From assembly GCA_013368445.1 (NCBI GenBank), contig JAACJO010000030.1, forward strand, positions 393,501-457,500: a stretch of DNA of 64,000 bases. Direction: 5' to 3'. The translations under genes and the position numbers were made by a program. Positions 5,008 to 54,975 of the stretch are shown piece after piece (position 1 is the stretch's first letter; each line of letters opens with the position of its first letter). Source of the DNA: Leucocoprinus leucothites. Taxonomy: Eukaryota; Basidiomycota; Agaricomycetes; Agaricales; Agaricaceae. The notes under the pieces were generated by a model that made no database searches, was not told the DNA's origin, and worked only from the letters and a program-made list of their open reading frames with translations.

Positions 5008-8000
5008 ATGTCGTCCTCCCTCCATCCTCTTGCTGAGCTCCCCCATCTCACAAGAGTCCAAAACGACATGGCCGATCTTACTCTTCCACCTTTGTCTACA
5101 TGGTCTCGCACATACCACCCCAGGAATCCTTACGTTGGTTCTTCCTCACCTCCCTCGTCTTCTCCCCCGCGCACTCCTGGCTATGGTACCAAGCAGGTCT
5201 CGTTGGCATATGACTATGCCCAGATTCGGTCTAGCCCTCAAATAGACCCCGGTGTTGTGAATTATACTTCAAGGGTACACGCCTATGAAGATTCACATCC
5301 CATGCTCTGGCATAACCGACTTGCCGCTGCTCACACGCATGTCAAATCCCCTCACCCGACGGCTTCCTCCTCGTACACGACCCCATCGATGTACATGTAC
5401 AGGTCGCGATACAGTACCGCCCCTTCTTCCGACTATTCCTCTGCTATTGGCGATACCGACGTCCGGTCGGATCTCCCCTCAGACAAAGAAGAACCAGAGG
5501 AAGAAGTGGATCCTAGTTCGGGCTTCTCGTTCAGTGAATTGGGAATCCACACACATACCATGTCTTTCCGAACTTCTGCCGAACGAGGACGATGGAGGAT
5601 CGACCCTATACCACCACCTAAACCGCAACACCAGCTACTTTCTTCAAGTCGGAAATCTGCCCCTGCCGCTAATACAGATGTGAATGCCAAGAATGCGAAT
5701 ATTTTGATAGCCTCTTCCACCCTCCGACCTATCTCGGAACCGGCGCCTCCAGTAGCAGGACCATCACCATCATCGCTATCTTCATCTACATCCATCATTC
5801 CCACCTGTCCCTCTAATACTGAGGCCGCAACCAATGTTGACATCAAACAGCACACATCCGTGCCCGAGGTAACATCCGCTCCATCGCCCTCCATGGCAGT
5901 CGCATCATTGCCATCATCGCCGCTCCCTTCCCTCCCAACCTCTCCAACGCTCGAACCAATAGAAGTCCCGCCCCTTACAAGCGACAGAGATAGTAGCATG
6001 GACGTCGATGAGCATTCGGAATCGGAACTATTAACGCCCTCGTCACCACTCCCACCTTCGTCGCCTCCGCCTCCGTTGCTGTTTAGTTCTTCGCCCGCGG
6101 TTTCACCTTTGCTGATGCCCGCCAGGGAGAATAATGTGTGTGACACGGGCGCTAGTGGAAGTGAAGCGGAGACGGAGAGTTCGCTCCGTGTTCAATCTCA
6201 ATCACTCCCATCAGCTTCCCCACCCCCGATTTCGTCTCCACTTGCTCTTCCACTTGCTCTTCCGGCAGAGGTTGATGCGCCATCTTCCCCACTGTCGCCT
6301 ATTTCTTCTGATTTTGGCGATTCATTCGATGATATTGACATGGAGGTGGACAGGGAAAGTGAGGAGGGTGGGGAAGTTGAGGAGGTTCCCACGCGTCAGA
6401 ATGGGTCCTGTGATGGTGATACGGCTCGTTCGGAAGATATCATCATTGGTCCCGCTGTCATCGTGGCACAAGACCAGGGCCCTGGCGAAGGATCACAACA
6501 TAAACAAGGTGCCCCCTCGGTCACAGTCTCGGTGAGTGAAACCCCACTTCCATTCCATCCTATTCTTGTAATCGTATCTGACGGCTGCTGGTTGTCAGGA
6601 TCTGGAATTGGACTCTACTCCCACACCGCGGACGCGTGATCGGGATCAACCTTTGCCCGCATGTGGTTCAGGCGCAGGGGCAAGTGGGAGGAGTAGTATT
6701 TTGAAACTGTTGATTCAAGAGACAGATGGGGATGTTCAGATGGTGGCCTCTTCAGCGTCTATATCCGGTATGTCCGGTGTGGATAGTGAGAGGCTATCGA
6801 CTTGTCCCCCGTCGATCAACTTGACCAAAGAAGACTATCTCCAGGTGGGATCGAGTTGTTCGAGAGATTCACCCACTTTGGACCTTGAATCCACTTCGTC
6901 CGCGCCCACACTTGTCTCAAATCGACAGGCCTCACCTCCATCTTCCTCCACCGCCTTACTCTATCCGGATACAATCACCATTGCTGTCGCCGCCACCGTC
7001 AGCTCCGAAGCTTCTACCAGTTCCACAAATTTGAAACGACCTATTTCGCCGCCACCAAACCCGACCTCGAATTTAGCTTCGAGTTCGATAAAGACGGGTT
7101 CTGATGCTAATGTTGGCACTGTTGATGATGCGGAAGGACCGGCGCGTAAACGATTAAGGATATCCGAGGAGGAGGATATTTCTGGATCTGTTGGTGATAA
7201 AGTTGATTCCACATCAACGACGGCAGAGGAAAAGCAGAACCAAGAACAGGAGGAGAAGGAAAATGTACCTGTGAGCGCTCCGAAGCGCAAAACCAAGGCT
7301 GGTGGTGTGAGGCGACGGAAAGTCCCGGCGATCACGAGTTCGGAGGTATCAAATTCTGCTCCAGATACTTCCGCGACTTCGGAAGTGAAGAAACCTGTGC
7401 AACAGAGGAAGAAACGAAAACCAAAATACGTTGTCATTGAAGAATCCTCCTCCTCATCTGACTCCGACTCCGACTCCGACGACTCCACATCTGATGCCTC
7501 TTCATCTTCACAACCACGCCGCAGAACAAAGAAAAATACAAAGTCCAAAGCTCAACAACGCCCACCAAAACCCCGCCTCGTCTTCCCCGATGACGGTATC
7601 CCCGAGACCAAAACGGTATCGCTCTGGTTGACGGTGAGATCTGTGGTATGATCATCGAAGGCATGGCCACTTCTCGCGCGTCCTCGTTGCCTATATCGCA
7701 GATCTGTAGAATCGTGTTGCAGAGTCGGCCGGCGATGCGGGAGGAGAAGAGTGAGAAAGAGTGGGGAGGGGTGTTTGAGAGGGTGTTGAAGAATGGATGT
7801 GACTCCTTTGGGAGTGGCGTGTTTGGAAAGGTGGATAGTAGCTATAAGGTGTGTATCGGCAGTTTGCGTTTTTTGGGGTGATGCTGACTTTTTTGTGCAG
7901 GATGATTCTAGTTCGTCGATCGAAGCAAGGTGGTTCTATGTACCAGAGAACGACTGTGATCAAGAGCGAGCGGCATTGATTAGGAGTATGATGCCGCGGC

Positions 8001-24409: not shown

Positions 24410-26154
24410 TCACTGGGCGTAACCAACCTGCATTTCCATTCCTTCTTCCTCGCCTCTCCGATTCCCGCTAGTCCTCACCGCATATATCGGTGTTTGGGAC
24501 GGATTATCCTGGTATGGCGACGGTGGCGTTTGATCTCGGAATGGCGAGAAAGGAATTTGCGAATTGCTGTTGTAGGGATCGGTCCGTTGTTGGTAAACAG
24601 GATTACCAACGACTTTCTCGTTGTTATCCATGGCAGCAGTCGCAGCTGATGCATCACCGATACCGGCACGAGTTCCCCAACCAGTCTGAAAACATAGTCA
24701 GTGCTGCGGTTTCGGTAATGTGGCTAAGGTGACGTACTTCATGTAATGTGCAGAGCGCGTAAAGCTTCATAACAGCGAAATAGTAACCGAATAGGATAAA
24801 TGCCGGCACATAAATGATGTCTTGTGGTCGGTGCCAAAGATGTGGCAGGAGCTTGGCCGTGCGGGTAGCAGAGAGCCAAACCATATATGACAAAATGATA
24901 TTCCTAAGGGAAACGTGAGTGGTGCATGGTAGACATGTATAGGAATACGCTTGCTTACCACCAAGGCAAATGATAACCCCCTTGATCAATGGGAATCGTA
25001 CTCTTGTAAATAAGATACGAAACTAGACAAGGACCGACGAGGAGCGTGAAAGGATTGAAAAGCTTGTCAACCTGAAAGAAATATGAGTATAGGAATACAG
25101 AATCACCGACGGGTACTTACCATGGTATAAGCGACGTATGGGTGTGCAGTCCAGATGTATCTTTCCATGAACAAACTCCTCATGTCCGACCGCCATGTGT
25201 TTCGTGTCCACCGAAGGACTTGCTTCAAAAAGCGCCAATTGGGCTTCATGGTACTCAGGAGCTCTGCCTCCTTGCAACACTGCACATAGGTACTCCATCC
25301 GTGGCTAACCATCCATCGCGTCAAAAACTTGTCGTCGCCCGAATTCAGCTGATATTTTCCGAGCCAGTAATCATGAGTAAAGCCGTGCAAAAATTCAGGG
25401 TCCTTGAGGATAACAGTGCGGTAGGCGGCCGTCCGCCCTGAAAGACAGGGAATGCCACCATCAATGTGTGTTGAACAAGAAATTTCAATGTTTCGGATTG
25501 TAAGTCGGAACGCTGCCAAAACTTCCCAGACTGTCATCCGGTCCCCACAAGGCTGGACACGCTGACTCGTTCCAACACCACCGACTTTCTGGTCTTCGAA
25601 ACAGGCCAGAACAGAGGGAAGGAGGGTAGGTGGCCAGATGGCATCATCATCAGCAAAAACAATAATGTCGGTTGTGCAGTTCTTGATGCCGTGACTCATC
25701 TGGAGGCGCTTGTTGGCAAAGGGGACGGTGAGGACGCGAATACGCTCCGGGTCGACTTGGTTGGCAAGGTCCTGGAGGGGTCCCAACATTTTTTCCTCGG
25801 TGATGATGAGGATTTCCTTGGGTTTGCCGACAAGCCAGCTGTTGGCGGCCTCCTTGAATTCCTCGCCTGCATCAATAGTGGGCACAATGATCGTAACATC
25901 CTCAGAGGCAATGTAGGTAGGATTTTCTGGGAGGGGAATGGGGCGGTAGGTCCAGGCCGCCGCCATACGTATTAGAAACCATAGGTAGCGGTAGAAGCTT
26001 GGGGGCTGTCAGCAACATGACCTGCCACTACACAAAACAAACACGTACCCAATGACACCAAAAGGCACAACTAAGAGGCACTAGTCAGGAGAAGCGACGG
26101 TGGGAAGGAAAAAGACTCACATATTGGAAAACTATCAGAGGTGAGGTAGAGCAT
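24410..26154 (-). CDS. fungal type 2 glycosyltransferase (GT2, hyaluronan/cellulose-synthase-like)
   Basis: Processive GT2 enzyme of the plasma membrane, of the family known in plant-pathogenic fungi as GT2 and needed there for hyphal growth. Its polysaccharide product is unknown. The core starts with EDVTIIVPTIDAGEEF. Catalytic motifs are IIVFADDDAIWPP (first Asp cluster), SGDDKFLTRW (GDD) and LKQVLRWTRN (QxxRW). Downstream membrane segments include VDKLFNPFTLLVGPCLVSYL, SYMVWLSATR and YVPAFILFGYYFAVMKLYAL; the C-terminus is TGWGTRAGIGD plus a Ser/Pro/Asn-rich tail ending GYAQ. The N-terminal part was rebuilt from small exons: ATG at 26154, MLYLTSDSFPI, a 40-nt intron, then LPLSCAFGVIGFYRYLWFLI, a membrane segment. 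The first intron is short, so the exact start is less sure than the rest. Confidence 0.88.
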
Positions 26155-32885: not shown

Positions 32886-34897
32886 CTACTTAACTCTTAC
32901 TTTCCTCTGGAATATCGAGTAGGACAACGCATCATCATCCAGAGGCACATAAATCAACTTCTTCAAGCCCCGATGTGTCCAATGACGGTTCTCCGTATCT
33001 TTGAGGAATAATGGCTTCCATCGATCTACGAGCATAAGAGCGCACTCCGGGATATCATTATTAACTGGTATGAATTGGTCCGAGGATAGACTACCGAGCG
33101 CACGAATGATGAAATGAAGTCCCGTGTTCTGATATCTCTGATAAGCTACTGTCTTGGTATGTCCTAGTAACCACTCACAGAAAGTAACCAAACATGGACC
33201 ACTCTTTGTTCCATCGCCTCCAAGCACTCCACGACCTTCCTTGTCTTCAATAACTCTATCCACGTGGTCGTACTGCCAATTATAAACCTCCTGCAACTCT
33301 CCCAGCAGTCTCGGAGTAGCTCTTCCTTTGGGTTAAACTCCTCCGGAAAATTTCCCAATAATCATTCAATAATCCAGGATTGATTACGATTCGACATAAA
33401 CTTCGTGGCACGGATGCACTTCTCTGCCCACGTTCAGACCAGATAATAACTGCTCGAAGCAATTCGGAGAGGTCTGGTATATAGGAATGGGGTAGTCGTG
33501 TGCCGTCGCTGAAGACAATATGCAGAGTGTGAAGGGGAAATGGCTGGAATGTAAAGACTGATCGCTTTGAGAAAGGCAGAAGGTTTGTCGAGGGGTGGAC
33601 AGTAAAGCTGGAGATATCCTAGACGTAGTAATTGAGCGAATGGGAAGGAAGTAAAGTCAGTCCTGGTCTCGGGTCTGCTGGTTTGGAAATACATAAAGTG
33701 TATATGTCCAATGGTTGGTCTCCGTAATGACTTGCAGTGGCGCCGAAGGATATGTAGAAATGACCCAGATGGTTCCGGTTCTGCTAGGATTGAAAAGACG
33801 CGAAAGTCCGCAAGCTGAGGGAAGGATAGGAATTTAAAATGATTCGAGGATAGATCGGAGGACGAACGAAGGCCGAGATCTTTGAGACGAGGTAACTCAA
33901 GCTTATTCGACTCGAATGCTGCTACTTCCGAGCCAACATATTCCAAGTCAAGCTCAACTAAATTACGACAGAGGTCCAAGTGAAGAAGGGTGAAGGACGT
34001 GAGTCCCACAAGTTTGAACCGTTCGAACTGACTCTATTGGGTGAGGTCGTGCATGAGCCCAGAACTAGTGGCATCAATAGACAAGTATAGCTTGAGTTCC
34101 GTAAGCAGTGGCACACTCTGGAAGGCTTCGCCGTACATGACCTGAAAACTACTGACACCGAGCTCCAAGTGAAATAATCGTGGGAGGCGACTTCGTAGCT
34201 GAGCGAGCTGCACCTCAAATTCTGGTGTCAATCTGCCAGAGATTAGAGATACCCTACCCCAGCGTTCTGCGTATTGGATCAAAAGGTCGATAACGACACC
34301 GGAGTGACCGTAAAGTGAGTCCTCAAATAGTTCTTCCTCTTCAAGAGATGCAGGATCCCAGCTTCCCTCCCAGTAAAAGTTTGATAGCCTGATCCCTCGA
34401 TCGAGCAAGATATCCGGGGAAGAAAGGAACCAGAACATCTGCAACCCTTCTTCGGTTGAATATATGTAGGAGAAGGATTCTCGTCCATAATTGTGGCGTA
34501 CGAAGAGCAATATCTCATCAGAGATGACAGACATGGGAGAGATACCAAGGGGTGATTTCTCGGTGGCATCCAGATACCGAATAAAGATATGGATGAGAAT
34601 TTCCGTGGGAATGCGACGGATCCGTGAAGCTAGAGTTGCACGACGGTCACGAGAACGAACCACTGCTTTGTGGGCTTCCTGGAATAAACACAGGTCAGAG
34701 GGGGCCAATCCAAGGGTTTGTATCCCTCCCTGGACACTTATCAGGTCGTCTGTGTTGATCGGGATATAGCATCCATTGAGTTCTTCAACTGGTTCCGAGA
34801 AAATTATCAACGAGTCAGAGGACCGAGAGTCGGGCCAAGTAGAAATTGACTCGAGGTGATGGCATGGTGCGGTGCTGACAAGAAAGGGCGGATGCAT
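32886..34897 (-). pseudogene. F-box/LRR-type protein gene, several frame breaks
   Basis: The 5' part (from ATG 34897) encodes a coiled lead (LASRIRRIPTEILIHIFIRY, the F-box) and LRR-like segments (LPRLFHLELGVSS, VPLLTELKLYLS). An in-frame TAG at 34034-34036 interrupts it; the same frame continues at once with FKLVGLTSFTLLHLDLCRNL and VELDLEYV. Around 33560 the reading changes frame to FQPFPLHTLHIVFSDGTRLP, then YIPDLSELLRAVIIWSERGQ and INPGLLNDYWEIF. Near 33390 and again near 33310 it changes again before LQEVYNWQYDHVDRVIED and a clean 130-residue C-terminus ending at 32886. One stop plus three frame changes within 800 bp, without usable introns, point to a pseudogene. Some breaks may be sequence errors, as in neighbouring genes. 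Confidence 0.6.
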
Positions 34898-51146: not shown

Positions 51147-52327
51147 ATGGCTCCTACCGTCAATCCCTCGACTCTCTCCTCCGCCCCCTCCCCTTCCCCC
51201 TCTTGTTCTTCTGAATCTGGTCCTCCCCGTAAACGTCCTCGCTCCGAAATCTCTTCTGATGAGCGCAAAGAAGCCCGCGCTCACCGTAATCGCATTGCGG
51301 CCCAGAACTCTCGTGATCGCCGAAAGGCTCAGTTTTCCTATCTAGAGCGCCGGGTTAATGAGCTCGAAGAAGAGAACCGCCAGCTTCGTATCTCTATTGG
51401 TCTTCTCTCTCAGGGCCAACAGCCACCTGTTCTTCCCCCTCCTACTGTTGTGACTCCGGTGAATGTACCCGTCGTGGAGGATCTTGCCCGCGACAGGGAA
51501 AACGCCGAGCTCAAGGAGCGTATTCGCACTCTTGAGCGTGGTTGGGACGCTGTAGTCAAGGCACTCGCAGCGCAAGGTCTCCCTACCGGTCTTACTCCCA
51601 CGGTATCTACACCCGCCGTACCTCCCACAGCCGCCTTTCCATCTCCCGCACCCTCTCACTCCTCTCTCGAATTCGAATCCACCACTGCCTCCCCCTCCAC
51701 ACCCTCCACAGTAACTCACCAACAACAACCCACATTCGTCCCAACATCATCTACATCGGCCTCCCCATCCACTTCCTCCCGCACAATGTCCCTCCCAGCC
51801 GTCACCACGAGCAACGAACAACAACACGAGCAAGATTCCACTCGCCACCTAGCACGGGTGGCGTCCACCTTTCCGGTGGCCCTGCAGCGGGTGGTCTTGC
51901 CTCTACGTCGTTCACGCTCAATGACTCCTTGGGAAATGGGTCTTCGCAGGTCGTCGATGAGGACGAGCAAGCGATGGAGGAATTGTTCCGTGAGATCCTC
52001 GTCCCGGTCCCTTCTGGCTCCGAGACGATGGTGAGTACGGAGGAGGTATCGAAAGAGGACGCTTCTGGCGCGACTGAGGAAAGGGCCAAGGAGGTTGTCG
52101 AAGGCAAAGAAAACTCGACTGAGATGAAGATGGACATTTCTGCTGACGATTCAGTGGATTGGGCGAATGAGATTGAGATGCAGAGATTGTTGGAATCATT
52201 GCAGCAGCATTCATCGGCTGCTGCCCTTGCGGCTGGGTCTCAAGATTTCTCGGGTCTTGGGCTGTTTTCATGGAATGAGGTCGAAGGAGTTGAGGGTATG
52301 ATCTCGAACGGTGTTGACGTGTTCTAG
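51147..52327 (+). CDS. HAC1: HAC1/XBP1-type bZIP transcription factor of the unfolded protein response
   Basis: Residues 28-56 carry a basic region KRPRSEISSDERKEARAH then NRIAAQNSRDRRKAQFSYLE, followed by a leucine zipper (LERRVNELEEENRQLRISIG, L at heptad spacing). NRIAAQNSRDRRKA is the form seen in HAC1/Cib1/Hxl1 proteins rather than in AP-1 or CREB types. There is no spliceosomal intron. Read straight through, the frame ends at 52034 (295 residues) with a basic, featureless tail. A second frame, continuing from about 51885 to 52327, encodes an acidic C-terminus (DEDEQAMEELFREILVPVPS, VDWANEIEMQRLLESLQQ) that looks like an activation domain. Joining the two needs removal of 2 mod 3 bases; deleting the 32-nt segment 51853-51884 gives 382 residues. 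This matches the Ire1-dependent switch of HAC1 mRNA. A lost base in the assembly is the alternative. Confidence 0.8.
51843..51896 (+). promoter_or_regulatory. candidate Ire1 cleavage hairpins and 32-nt non-canonical intron
   Basis: A perfect hairpin: CGCCACC (51843-51849), a 7-nt loop TAGCACG, and GGTGGCG (51857-51863). Cleavage after the third loop base (G51852) would match the HAC1/XBP1 rule of a 7-nt loop cut G|C. The 3' site holds CTG|CAGC at 51882-51888, the same loop sequence as the XBP1 3' site, but its flanking stem is weak (two G-C pairs, an internal loop, then two more). Cuts after 51852 and 51884 release 32 nt and restore the frame. The 5' loop departs from the CNGCNGN consensus at positions 1 and 6. 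Confidence 0.55.
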
Positions 52328-53718: not shown

Positions 53719-53938
53719 GTGGCTCAAAAAACTGTCCCAATGTTTTCGCATTTTGGGCATATTTGCTAATGCCGGGGCAGATATATGGCCTAGCATCCTG
53801 AAAATATTCACACAGGTACCTTGACATATTGGGAGCATATATTCCCATGATCACATGACCTTGTACATCAATGAATTATTAATGGAATTATCAAAAATAT
53901 CTACTCATTGGGACAGTTTTTTGACCCCCTGTTATCTA
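53719..53938 (+). repeat. left inverted arm of the Tc1/mariner element
   Basis: Starts near GGCTCAAAAAACTGTCCCAA and ends with ATTGGGACAGTTTTTTGA. It is the reverse complement of 57424-57621 with high similarity, and has its own short inverted ends (CAAAAAACTGTCCCAAT versus ATTGGGACAGTTTTTTG), so each arm resembles a small MITE. Confidence 0.75.
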
Positions 53939-53943
53939 CCTAC

Positions 53944-54975
53944 TCAATACTTTGTATGACCTCCTCTTGCCCTGATAACTGCCTCAATCCTTCTGCACAT
54001 GTTTTCTATCAGCCTTTGGCACCTTTCTGCTGGAATCTTATTCCACTCCTCTACTAGCCTTTCCCACAATTCAAATACTCCCTTGGGTGGTCTTTCATAT
54101 GTCTTCAGCTGGTTCTTCAGGTAGGTCCAGAGGTGTTCAATGGGATTTAGGTCAGGGGATTGTGCAGGCTATGATAGAACTTGAATGTTGCTGTCTACAA
54201 GCCATTGTTGTCCCAGTTTTGAGGTGTGTTTTGGGTCATTATCCTGCTGGAATATCCTCTCCCCTCCTCTATCTCCAACTTTTCAAAGCTTTCCACCACC
54301 CCATTGTCCAAAATCTCGCAGTATTGCACTGCATCCATATTCCCTTGAACCTCTATCAGCTTTCCTGCCCTATTCCACCCCATACACCCCCACACCATCA
54401 TGTTACCACCTCCTCCATGTTTGTCAGTAGGGAGAGTCATCCTATCTGACAGTGGTTCCCCTCTCTCCTTCCAGGTATACACCTTTCCATCTGACCCAAT
54501 CCTGTTGATCTTTGTTTCATCTGTCTACAACACCCTCTTTCAGTCCTCCACTATCTGATTCCTATGTTCATGTGCAAAGTCAAGGCATTCTTCATGATGT
54601 CACTTTTTGAGTAGAGGTTGTTTGATCTTGTTTACAAAGCAAAATCCATTATCCTGAAGGGTATTTCTGACAGTTTGGGGTGTGACAGGGTCAGACAGAG
54701 TAGAGTTAATGAAAGTTGTAGCCTGGACAGCATTGTCTAGCTTTCCAGAGGTTATTTGGTGAATTATTACTTTTTTATCATGAGGAGAAAGCTTGGAAGG
54801 ATGTCCTCCCTTGTTGTTTTCCTTGTTCCCATCAACTTCTTTCTTGATCCTCCCAACAGTAGACTTGCCTAGACCAGTTTTATATTCAATCTGGTGCAAG
54901 GAATAGCCATCTTTGAGAAGAGAAGTGACTTGGGAGTATTGGGTAGAGGAGATAGCTTGTTATAGTAACACCAGC
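53944..54975 (-). pseudogene. Tc1-type DD34E transposase, inactivated
   Basis: The N-terminal helix-turn-helix part reads SLHQIEYKTGLGKSTVGRIK (about 54900), with QTVRNTLQDNGF. The catalytic domain shows TDETKINRIGSDGKVYTWKE, MMVWGCMGW, FQQDNDPKHTSKLGQQWL, and SPDLNPIEHLWTYLKNQLKT, ending GGHTKY at 53944. DDE residues are Asp in TDET, Asp in QQDND and Glu in NPIEHLW. It is dead: stops occur after PLLKK (54600), at two places in the segment before TDETK, and before PAQSPDLNP; a frame break lies near 54255. The stops replace Arg or Trp codons and fit C-to-T or G-to-A changes. Confidence 0.8.

What the first reader, a model, noticed from the sequence alone, without database searches (positions are those of the whole stretch)
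51843..51896. HAC1-like bZIP gene with a candidate 32-nt Ire1-spliced intron
Seen: bZIP of the NRIAAQNSRDRRKA type; the coding frame must change by 2 mod 3 near 51850-51885; a perfect 7-bp stem with 7-nt loop TAGCACG at 51843-51863; and the XBP1-like loop CTG|CAGC at 51882-51888. Cutting after 51852 and 51884 removes 32 nt, restores the frame and adds an acidic activation-like C-terminus. Known: HAC1, XBP1, Cib1 and Hxl1 mRNAs are switched on by cytoplasmic Ire1 splicing at such G|C loops. Inferred: this gene is the UPR switch of this fungus with its own intron size. Weak points: the 3' stem is poor, the 5' loop departs from consensus, and single-base losses occur in other genes here.
Basis: partly seen in the sequence, partly recalled or inferred. 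Interest (0 to 1): 0.85.

Follow-up and report, generated by a model that had tools for sequence, protein, structure and literature searches.

The report
Mushroom stress-switch gene with Ire1 intron
This fungal gene very probably encodes the master switch of the response to misfolded proteins, and its messenger RNA carries a tiny 32-letter insert that the stress sensor Ire1 most likely cuts out; the same insert is conserved in many mushroom-forming fungi, where the gene is often annotated wrongly.

Summary
A bZIP frame starts at 51147 and stops at 52034; a second frame, ending at 52327, carries a conserved acidic tail. Removing 51853-51884 (32 nt) joins them (382 aa). I read 219 homologues out of capped lists. 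In 177 of 219 the peptide encoded by the 5' hairpin is kept; 14 of 219 read exactly across the proposed junction. One pair, P0009 and P0059, shows the same sequence with and without the intron: 187 identical residues before it, and compatible readings of 59 codons after it. Two Lentinula raphanica records decode to 27 nt and 15 nt identical to this window at the two sites, with a different intron middle. A compensatory change keeps the 5' stem, and the 3' cut keeps CNG-compatible codons. The genome holds IRE1 and a Trl1-type ligase. Unexpected: the conserved 5' loop breaks the CNG|CNGN rule, and the exons can pair across the intron, as described for XBP1. No RNA of this species was seen; stress and Ire1 dependence are inferred. 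The main earlier survey of such introns could not be read, so priority is open.

The parts
51147..51852 (+). 5' exon of the coding sequence (235 codons plus 1 nt), with the bZIP at about 51255-51410
   Evidence: the start matches that of P0001
51853..51884 (+). 32-nt intron, most likely removed by Ire1; exact register ambiguous by up to 3 nt because GCA is repeated at both ends, the G|C register being chosen from known Ire1 cuts
51885..52327 (+). 3' exon: tail of 147 residues (31 D+E, 7 K+R) with MEELFREIL at about 51974-52000, end NGVDVF as in P0001
51843..51863 (+). 5' splice-site hairpin, 7 bp, loop UAG|CACG; can also close as 8 bp with a 5-nt loop
51882..51888 (+). 3' splice-site loop motif CUG|CAGC; weak stem in this species
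51865..51879 (+). hairpin inside the intron (5 bp, pair probability 0.92-0.95); not conserved in decoded Lentinula sequence
51830..51845 (+). exon-1 arm of the exon-exon helix (core 51838-51845)
51887..51900 (+). exon-2 arm of the exon-exon helix (core 51887-51894)
52032..52034 (+). stop codon of the unspliced reading (295 aa, bZIP without the tail)

Best explanation
The gene is the HAC1/XBP1-type activator of the unfolded protein response in an agaric fungus. Its unspliced mRNA encodes a 295-aa form with the bZIP but without the acidic tail. Under ER stress, IRE1 cuts after 51852 and after 51884 (both G|C), the exon ends stay paired across the gap, and the Trl1-type ligase joins them. Loss of 32 nt shifts the frame and gives the 382-aa form with the tail. 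Shown here: the anatomy, conservation of both sites, junction-spanning proteins in relatives, and IRE1 and Trl1-type genes in the genome. Inferred: Ire1 as the cutter, ER stress as the trigger, activation by the tail, and the role of the exon-exon helix.
For: 14 of 219 homologues read exactly across the junction: 11 RHLAAGG, counted from the list as RHLAAGG in 10, RHLAAGV in 1, RHPAAGG in 2 and RQLAAGG in 1. Four of them (P0009, P0052, P0088, P0171) are open frames on contigs of 1.3-2.4 kb; the other ten are named genome annotations, two of them both from Pholiota molesta. P0009 and P0059 share 187 identical residues before the intron and compatible two-frame readings of 59 codons after it. 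The unspliced 5' peptide is kept in 177 of 219. Decoded Lentinula RNA equals the window over 51837-51863 and 51880-51894. Stem pair 51848-51858: His to Gln goes with Val to Leu in 3 of 3. Codons at the 3' cut are CNG-compatible in 120 of 123 readable cases. Among 163 spliceosomal-type introns tried in the window that restore the frame, none gives HLAAGG. IRE1 with kinase and RNase and a ligase with PF09511 and PF08302 are present.
Against: No RNA of this species was seen and no stress data exist here. The 5' loop lacks C at 1 and G at 6 of CNG|CNGN, and the 3' stem is weak. The local fold is no better than 25 of 200 shuffles. Rfam gave no HAC1 or XBP1 match, only two unrelated weak ones. 205 of 219 database proteins do not show the junction. 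The homologue counts come from capped, related lists, and the hairpin peptide was found by a pattern that fixes those residues.
Confidence: 0.92

Rival explanations
1. The frame break is a single-base error of this assembly, or a decayed gene, and the hairpins are chance.
Against: The same frame change at the same sites is seen in many named genomes and unnamed contigs, P0009/P0059 show both forms, and the tail of the second frame is conserved.
Confidence: 0.02
2. An ordinary spliceosomal intron restores the frame.
For: 163 introns of the GT-AG, GC-AG or AT-AC type with starts at 51700-51959 and lengths of 15-199 nt restore the frame, and many database gene models use some such intron (classes H and F).
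Against: None of the 163 gives HLAAGG and none begins with any of the nine good donor hexamers I listed. The models that use such introns differ from species to species. Introns of 29-56 nt with these ends would be unusual for the spliceosome (recalled).
Confidence: 0.03
3. Programmed ribosomal frameshifting at the structured overlap makes the long protein without splicing.
For: A stable structure and a long overlap of two open frames; this too could conserve RNA.
Against: Frameshifting would not remove the 10 or so residues between the sites; 14 of 219 proteins lack exactly that stretch, four of them as single open frames on short contigs.
Confidence: 0.02
4. The intron is excised as proposed but by another nuclease, or constitutively and not by ER stress.
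For: The 5' loop breaks the CNG|CNGN rule measured for yeast Ire1 (PMC8104961, PMC6037481, passages).
Against: The 3' site fits the rule, the gene belongs with Hxl1-type bZIP proteins, and the genome's IRE1 has the interface residues of Ire1 forms that tolerate other loops.
Confidence: 0.05

Closest known systems
HXL1 of Cryptococcus neoformans (PMC3154848, passages read)
   Same: Basidiomycete bZIP mRNA with an Ire1-dependent short intron after the bZIP that changes the C-terminus; the paper names Coprinopsis CC1G_02249 and Laccaria LACBIDRAFT_293210 as uncharacterised homologues
   Different: 56-nt intron, CAG at both borders; no intron data for the mushrooms in the passages seen
Cib1 of Ustilago maydis (PMC10688622, passages read; 65-nt intron recalled)
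   Same: Ire1-spliced bZIP switch of the UPR in a basidiomycete
   Different: Different intron size; no sequence compared here
XBP1 of animals (PMC6037481 passages; abstract listings)
   Same: Small intron (26 nt, listing), 3' loop CUG|CAGC, exons held by a zipper-like structure
   Different: Both XBP1 loops are conserved 7-mers; here the 5' loop departs and the 3' stem is weak
HAC1 of Saccharomyces cerevisiae (PMC3154848 and PMC8104961 passages)
   Same: Ire1 cutting followed by Trl1 joining of a bZIP mRNA
   Different: 252-nt intron that blocks translation by pairing with the 5' UTR; here 32 nt, and no such pairing was looked for

Membership tests
HAC1/XBP1-type Ire1-spliced bZIP mRNA | bZIP domain encoded upstream of the intron | tested here: met
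HAC1/XBP1-type Ire1-spliced bZIP mRNA | removal of the intron changes the frame and the C-terminus | tested here: met
   junction-spanning proteins in 14 of 219 relatives
HAC1/XBP1-type Ire1-spliced bZIP mRNA | both cuts at G|C | tested here: met
   sequence at 51852/51853 and 51884/51885; register ambiguous by up to 3 nt
HAC1/XBP1-type Ire1-spliced bZIP mRNA | 3' site CNG|CNGN in a 7-nt hairpin loop | tested here: inconclusive
   motif met and CNG-compatible in 120 of 123 readable relatives; stable stem not met in this species
HAC1/XBP1-type Ire1-spliced bZIP mRNA | 5' site CNG|CNGN in a 7-nt hairpin loop | tested here: not met
   hairpin met, loop is UAG|CACG; filed as a variant for this reason
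HAC1/XBP1-type Ire1-spliced bZIP mRNA | genome encodes Ire1 with kinase and RNase, and a Trl1-type ligase | tested here: met
HAC1/XBP1-type Ire1-spliced bZIP mRNA | splicing depends on Ire1 and rises with ER stress | not testable with these tools
   needs RNA and an ire1 mutant
spliceosomal intron | GT-AG, GC-AG or AT-AC ends giving the observed junction | tested here: not met
   0 of 163 frame-restoring candidates give HLAAGG

The most novel reading that the evidence does not exclude
Mushroom-forming fungi follow their own recognition rule for the UPR intron: the 5' cut sits in a conserved YNG|CNCG loop (or a 5-nt loop closed by U-G or C-G), the 3' cut keeps CNG|CNGN, and both are read by an Ire1 with the S. 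pombe-like, loop-tolerant dimer interface; the exons are held by a zipper helix that competes with the splice-site hairpins and drives intron release.
Probability: 0.45. Interest if true: 0.72.

Novelty: new variant of a known kind. Interest (0 to 1): 0.6.

Why it matters
A 2014 genome paper on the white-rot fungus Pycnoporus cinnabarinus found Ire1 and Trl1 but no clear Hac1/XBP1 (PMC4101180, passages); P0013, listed under Trametes cinnabarina (the same species, recalled), is a homologue that keeps the 5' peptide and then follows another junction. The result gives an RT-PCR marker of ER stress for edible, medicinal and enzyme-producing mushrooms, a way to correct gene models in bulk, and a natural test of how far Ire1 loop rules can drift.

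Tried and rejected
Assembly error, spliceosomal intron and ribosomal frameshifting: see rivals. A 35-nt intron (second cut after 51887, loop CAG|CGGG) also restores the frame, but would give HLAGG, while 14 of 14 junction proteins read A-A-G. CNGCNGN at 51796 as a 5' site has no contiguous stem. Rfam gave two unrelated weak matches. For DNA of relatives one viral-contig scan found none; I did not scan genome contigs, and no fungal DNA collection was offered, so the nucleotide comparison rests on decoding two reading frames. The exon-exon helix beyond its 8-bp core is built differently in decoded Lentinula, so only the core is claimed as shared; the helix was tested against random positions, not by covariation. 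Class limits: I could not see beyond the best 120 of each protein search, so nothing is said of fungi outside the listed names. Structure prediction was not used. Literature: ten paper searches ran (listings only, most of them capped) and no listed title or abstract describes an Agaricomycete Ire1 intron. The survey by Hooks and Griffiths-Jones 2011 is not held and may contain some. A first two-frame check of P0009/P0059 was set one codon off and looked incompatible; redone in register it agrees over 59 codons.

Full report
WHAT IS THERE. A bZIP reading frame starts at ATG 51147 and runs to a stop at 52034 (295 aa); a second frame ends at 52327. The bZIP covers about residues 37-88. Both frames are open from 51536 to 52034, so stop codons do not say where the frame changes. 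The added tail of 147 residues has 31 D+E and 7 K+R.

WHAT RELATIVES SHOW. Three protein searches reported 452, 523 and 549 matches and listed the best 120 each. I read all 219 distinct proteins listed (120, 42 new, 57 new). By pattern: 130 hold the unspliced peptide in line, as in STRHLARVA..spacer..LQRV; 14 read exactly across the junction; 47 keep the 5' peptide but then take another junction or have a variant 3' codon; 23 show the other frame of the same sites; 5 show neither. An earlier count over 162 gave 80, 13, 41, 23 and 5, with one false placement (P0047). Where readable the intron is 29-56 nt, most often 47 (46 of 130). Lengths of 2 mod 3 follow from the in-line reading and are no separate evidence. 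Names include Agaricus, Lentinula, Mycena, Trametes, Bondarzewia, Gloeophyllum, Jaapia, Fomitiporia and Piloderma; that all the names seen are Agaricomycetes is recalled. The best full-length match is a Leucoagaricus at 60% identity, so the host is probably in or near Agaricaceae (inference).

SPLICED PRODUCTS. P0009 and P0059 share 187 identical residues up to the junction; P0009 goes on as AGGLELF, P0059 as RVATTERPSSVSLQRV. Read in two frames, their sequences after the intron are compatible over 59 codons, so they are one sequence with and without a 41-nt intron. P0009, P0052, P0088 and P0171 are open frames on contigs of 1284-2369 nt; the contigs themselves must lack the intron and are most likely assembled RNA (inference; the sources do not say). 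The other ten junction proteins are named genome annotations. In the window 163 spliceosomal-type introns restore the frame and none gives HLAAGG.

RNA-LEVEL CONSTRAINT. Two Lentinula raphanica records (P0017 and P0012) read the locus in different frames; solving both gives its RNA over 60 codons. UCCACUCGCCACCUAGCACGGGUGGCG and CCCUGCAGCGGGUGG are identical to 51837-51863 and 51880-51894, synonymous positions included; the middle differs (16 nt here, 22 nt there). At stem pair 51848-51858, His to Gln goes with Val to Leu in 3 of 3 proteins, as expected for C-G to G-C, while Val stands in 160 of 174 proteins with His. Five His/Leu proteins run counter; in my reading they are gene models that leave the frame after Arg. 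Five His/Met proteins would need a U at 51848, which proteins cannot show. At the 3' cut the two codons are LQ 96, QQ 19, RQ 3 and LP 2 of 123 readable; L, P, Q and R are the amino acids with CNG codons. Of the other three, P0002 and P0147 are misplaced readings and P0114 is a doubtful model; 54 of 177 could not be read. In the 130 in-line proteins the residue before this pair is S, P, A or T in all, and the one at the exon-1 arm is S, P, T or A in 127; these have C as middle base if serine is UCN. Such residues make up 59% of the linker anyway. Entropy is 0-0.33 bits over the hairpin codons against about 2.4-3.3 in most of the linker, but the hairpin columns are limited by the search pattern; the Thr just before it (79 of 80) is not.

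STRUCTURE. The 7-bp stem with a 7-nt loop is -11.7 kcal/mol; with U51850-G51856 paired it is 8 bp with a 5-nt loop, -13.4. In the regional fold, exon 1 (51838-45) pairs with exon 2 (51887-94) at probabilities of 0.61-0.95, the inner four pairs of the 5' hairpin reach 0.94-0.95, and its outer three fall to 0.09-0.37 because the two helices compete. The joined exons form a 14-bp helix of -22.3 kcal/mol; 8 of 18200 window positions of the same geometry do as well, and 12 of 9256 at matched GC. Decoded Lentinula gives -24.0. PMC6037481 (passage) describes a zipper-like structure holding XBP1 exons; the original paper is not held. The 3' hairpin is weak here, and the region's fold energy is unremarkable.

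MACHINERY. IRE1 lies on contig C14 (L012): RNase PF06479 in two exons; kinase, a membrane-spanning stretch and a lumenal part were read by eye from open frames, and the joined kinase-RNase matches yeast IRE1 chains 2rio and 3fbv at E 1.3e-115 and 3e-115. At yeast positions 988/992/1059, which I counted from the alignment, it has N/D/K. PMC8104961 (passages) calls D/E at 992 with K/R at 1059 the S. pombe-like pattern; yeast Ire1 given D and R there accepted other loop sizes and, in one substrate, needed only the G and C at the cut. That fits a departing 5' loop; cleavage was not tested. A ligase with PF09511 (stretch read through two TAG codons, presumably introns) and PF08302 lies on C6. DNA search found one copy of the bZIP gene.

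WHAT IS KNOWN. PMC3154848 (passages) names mushroom homologues of Hxl1; the passages give no intron for them. PMC4101180 (passages) reports no clear Hac1/XBP1 in P. cinnabarinus. Ten paper searches listed no description of the Agaricomycete intron, but the 2011 survey of HAC1 introns could not be read. I file it as a variant of a known kind: of the defining features tested, one (the 5' loop rule) is not met, one (the 3' hairpin) is undecided, and stress and Ire1 dependence could not be tested.

Noticed in passing
53944-54524, minus strand: Remains of a Tc1/mariner-like transposase (DDE_3, E 8.9e-06, below the curated cut-off, on one of two fragments scanned) downstream of the gene; a stretch near 53722 reads like the reverse complement of one near 53906, by eye.
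   Followed up: partly
public protein records among P0001-P0220: The locus is often annotated with a false intron or as a truncated protein (classes H and F: 70 of 219), and one record is named 'cell division protein FtsB' (P0086).
   Followed up: yes
25103-25966 and 34034-34897, minus strand: Two open frames of the same length (287 aa) on the same strand, possibly a duplicated gene.
   Followed up: no
6587-6628, plus strand: The only other place in the window where the hairpin plus CNGCNGN pattern occurs (41 nt apart); taken as chance.
   Followed up: no
homologues P0166, P0167, P0209, P0210, P0212: Arg at the base of the 5' stem is Cys, in three of them with Ala to Val opposite, which would trade G-C for G-U pairs in the outer stem.
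   Followed up: partly
genome contig C6:1047304-1047438, minus strand: A second, partial match to the RNA ligase family PF09511 (E 2.1e-6) downstream of the Trl1-type gene.
   Followed up: no
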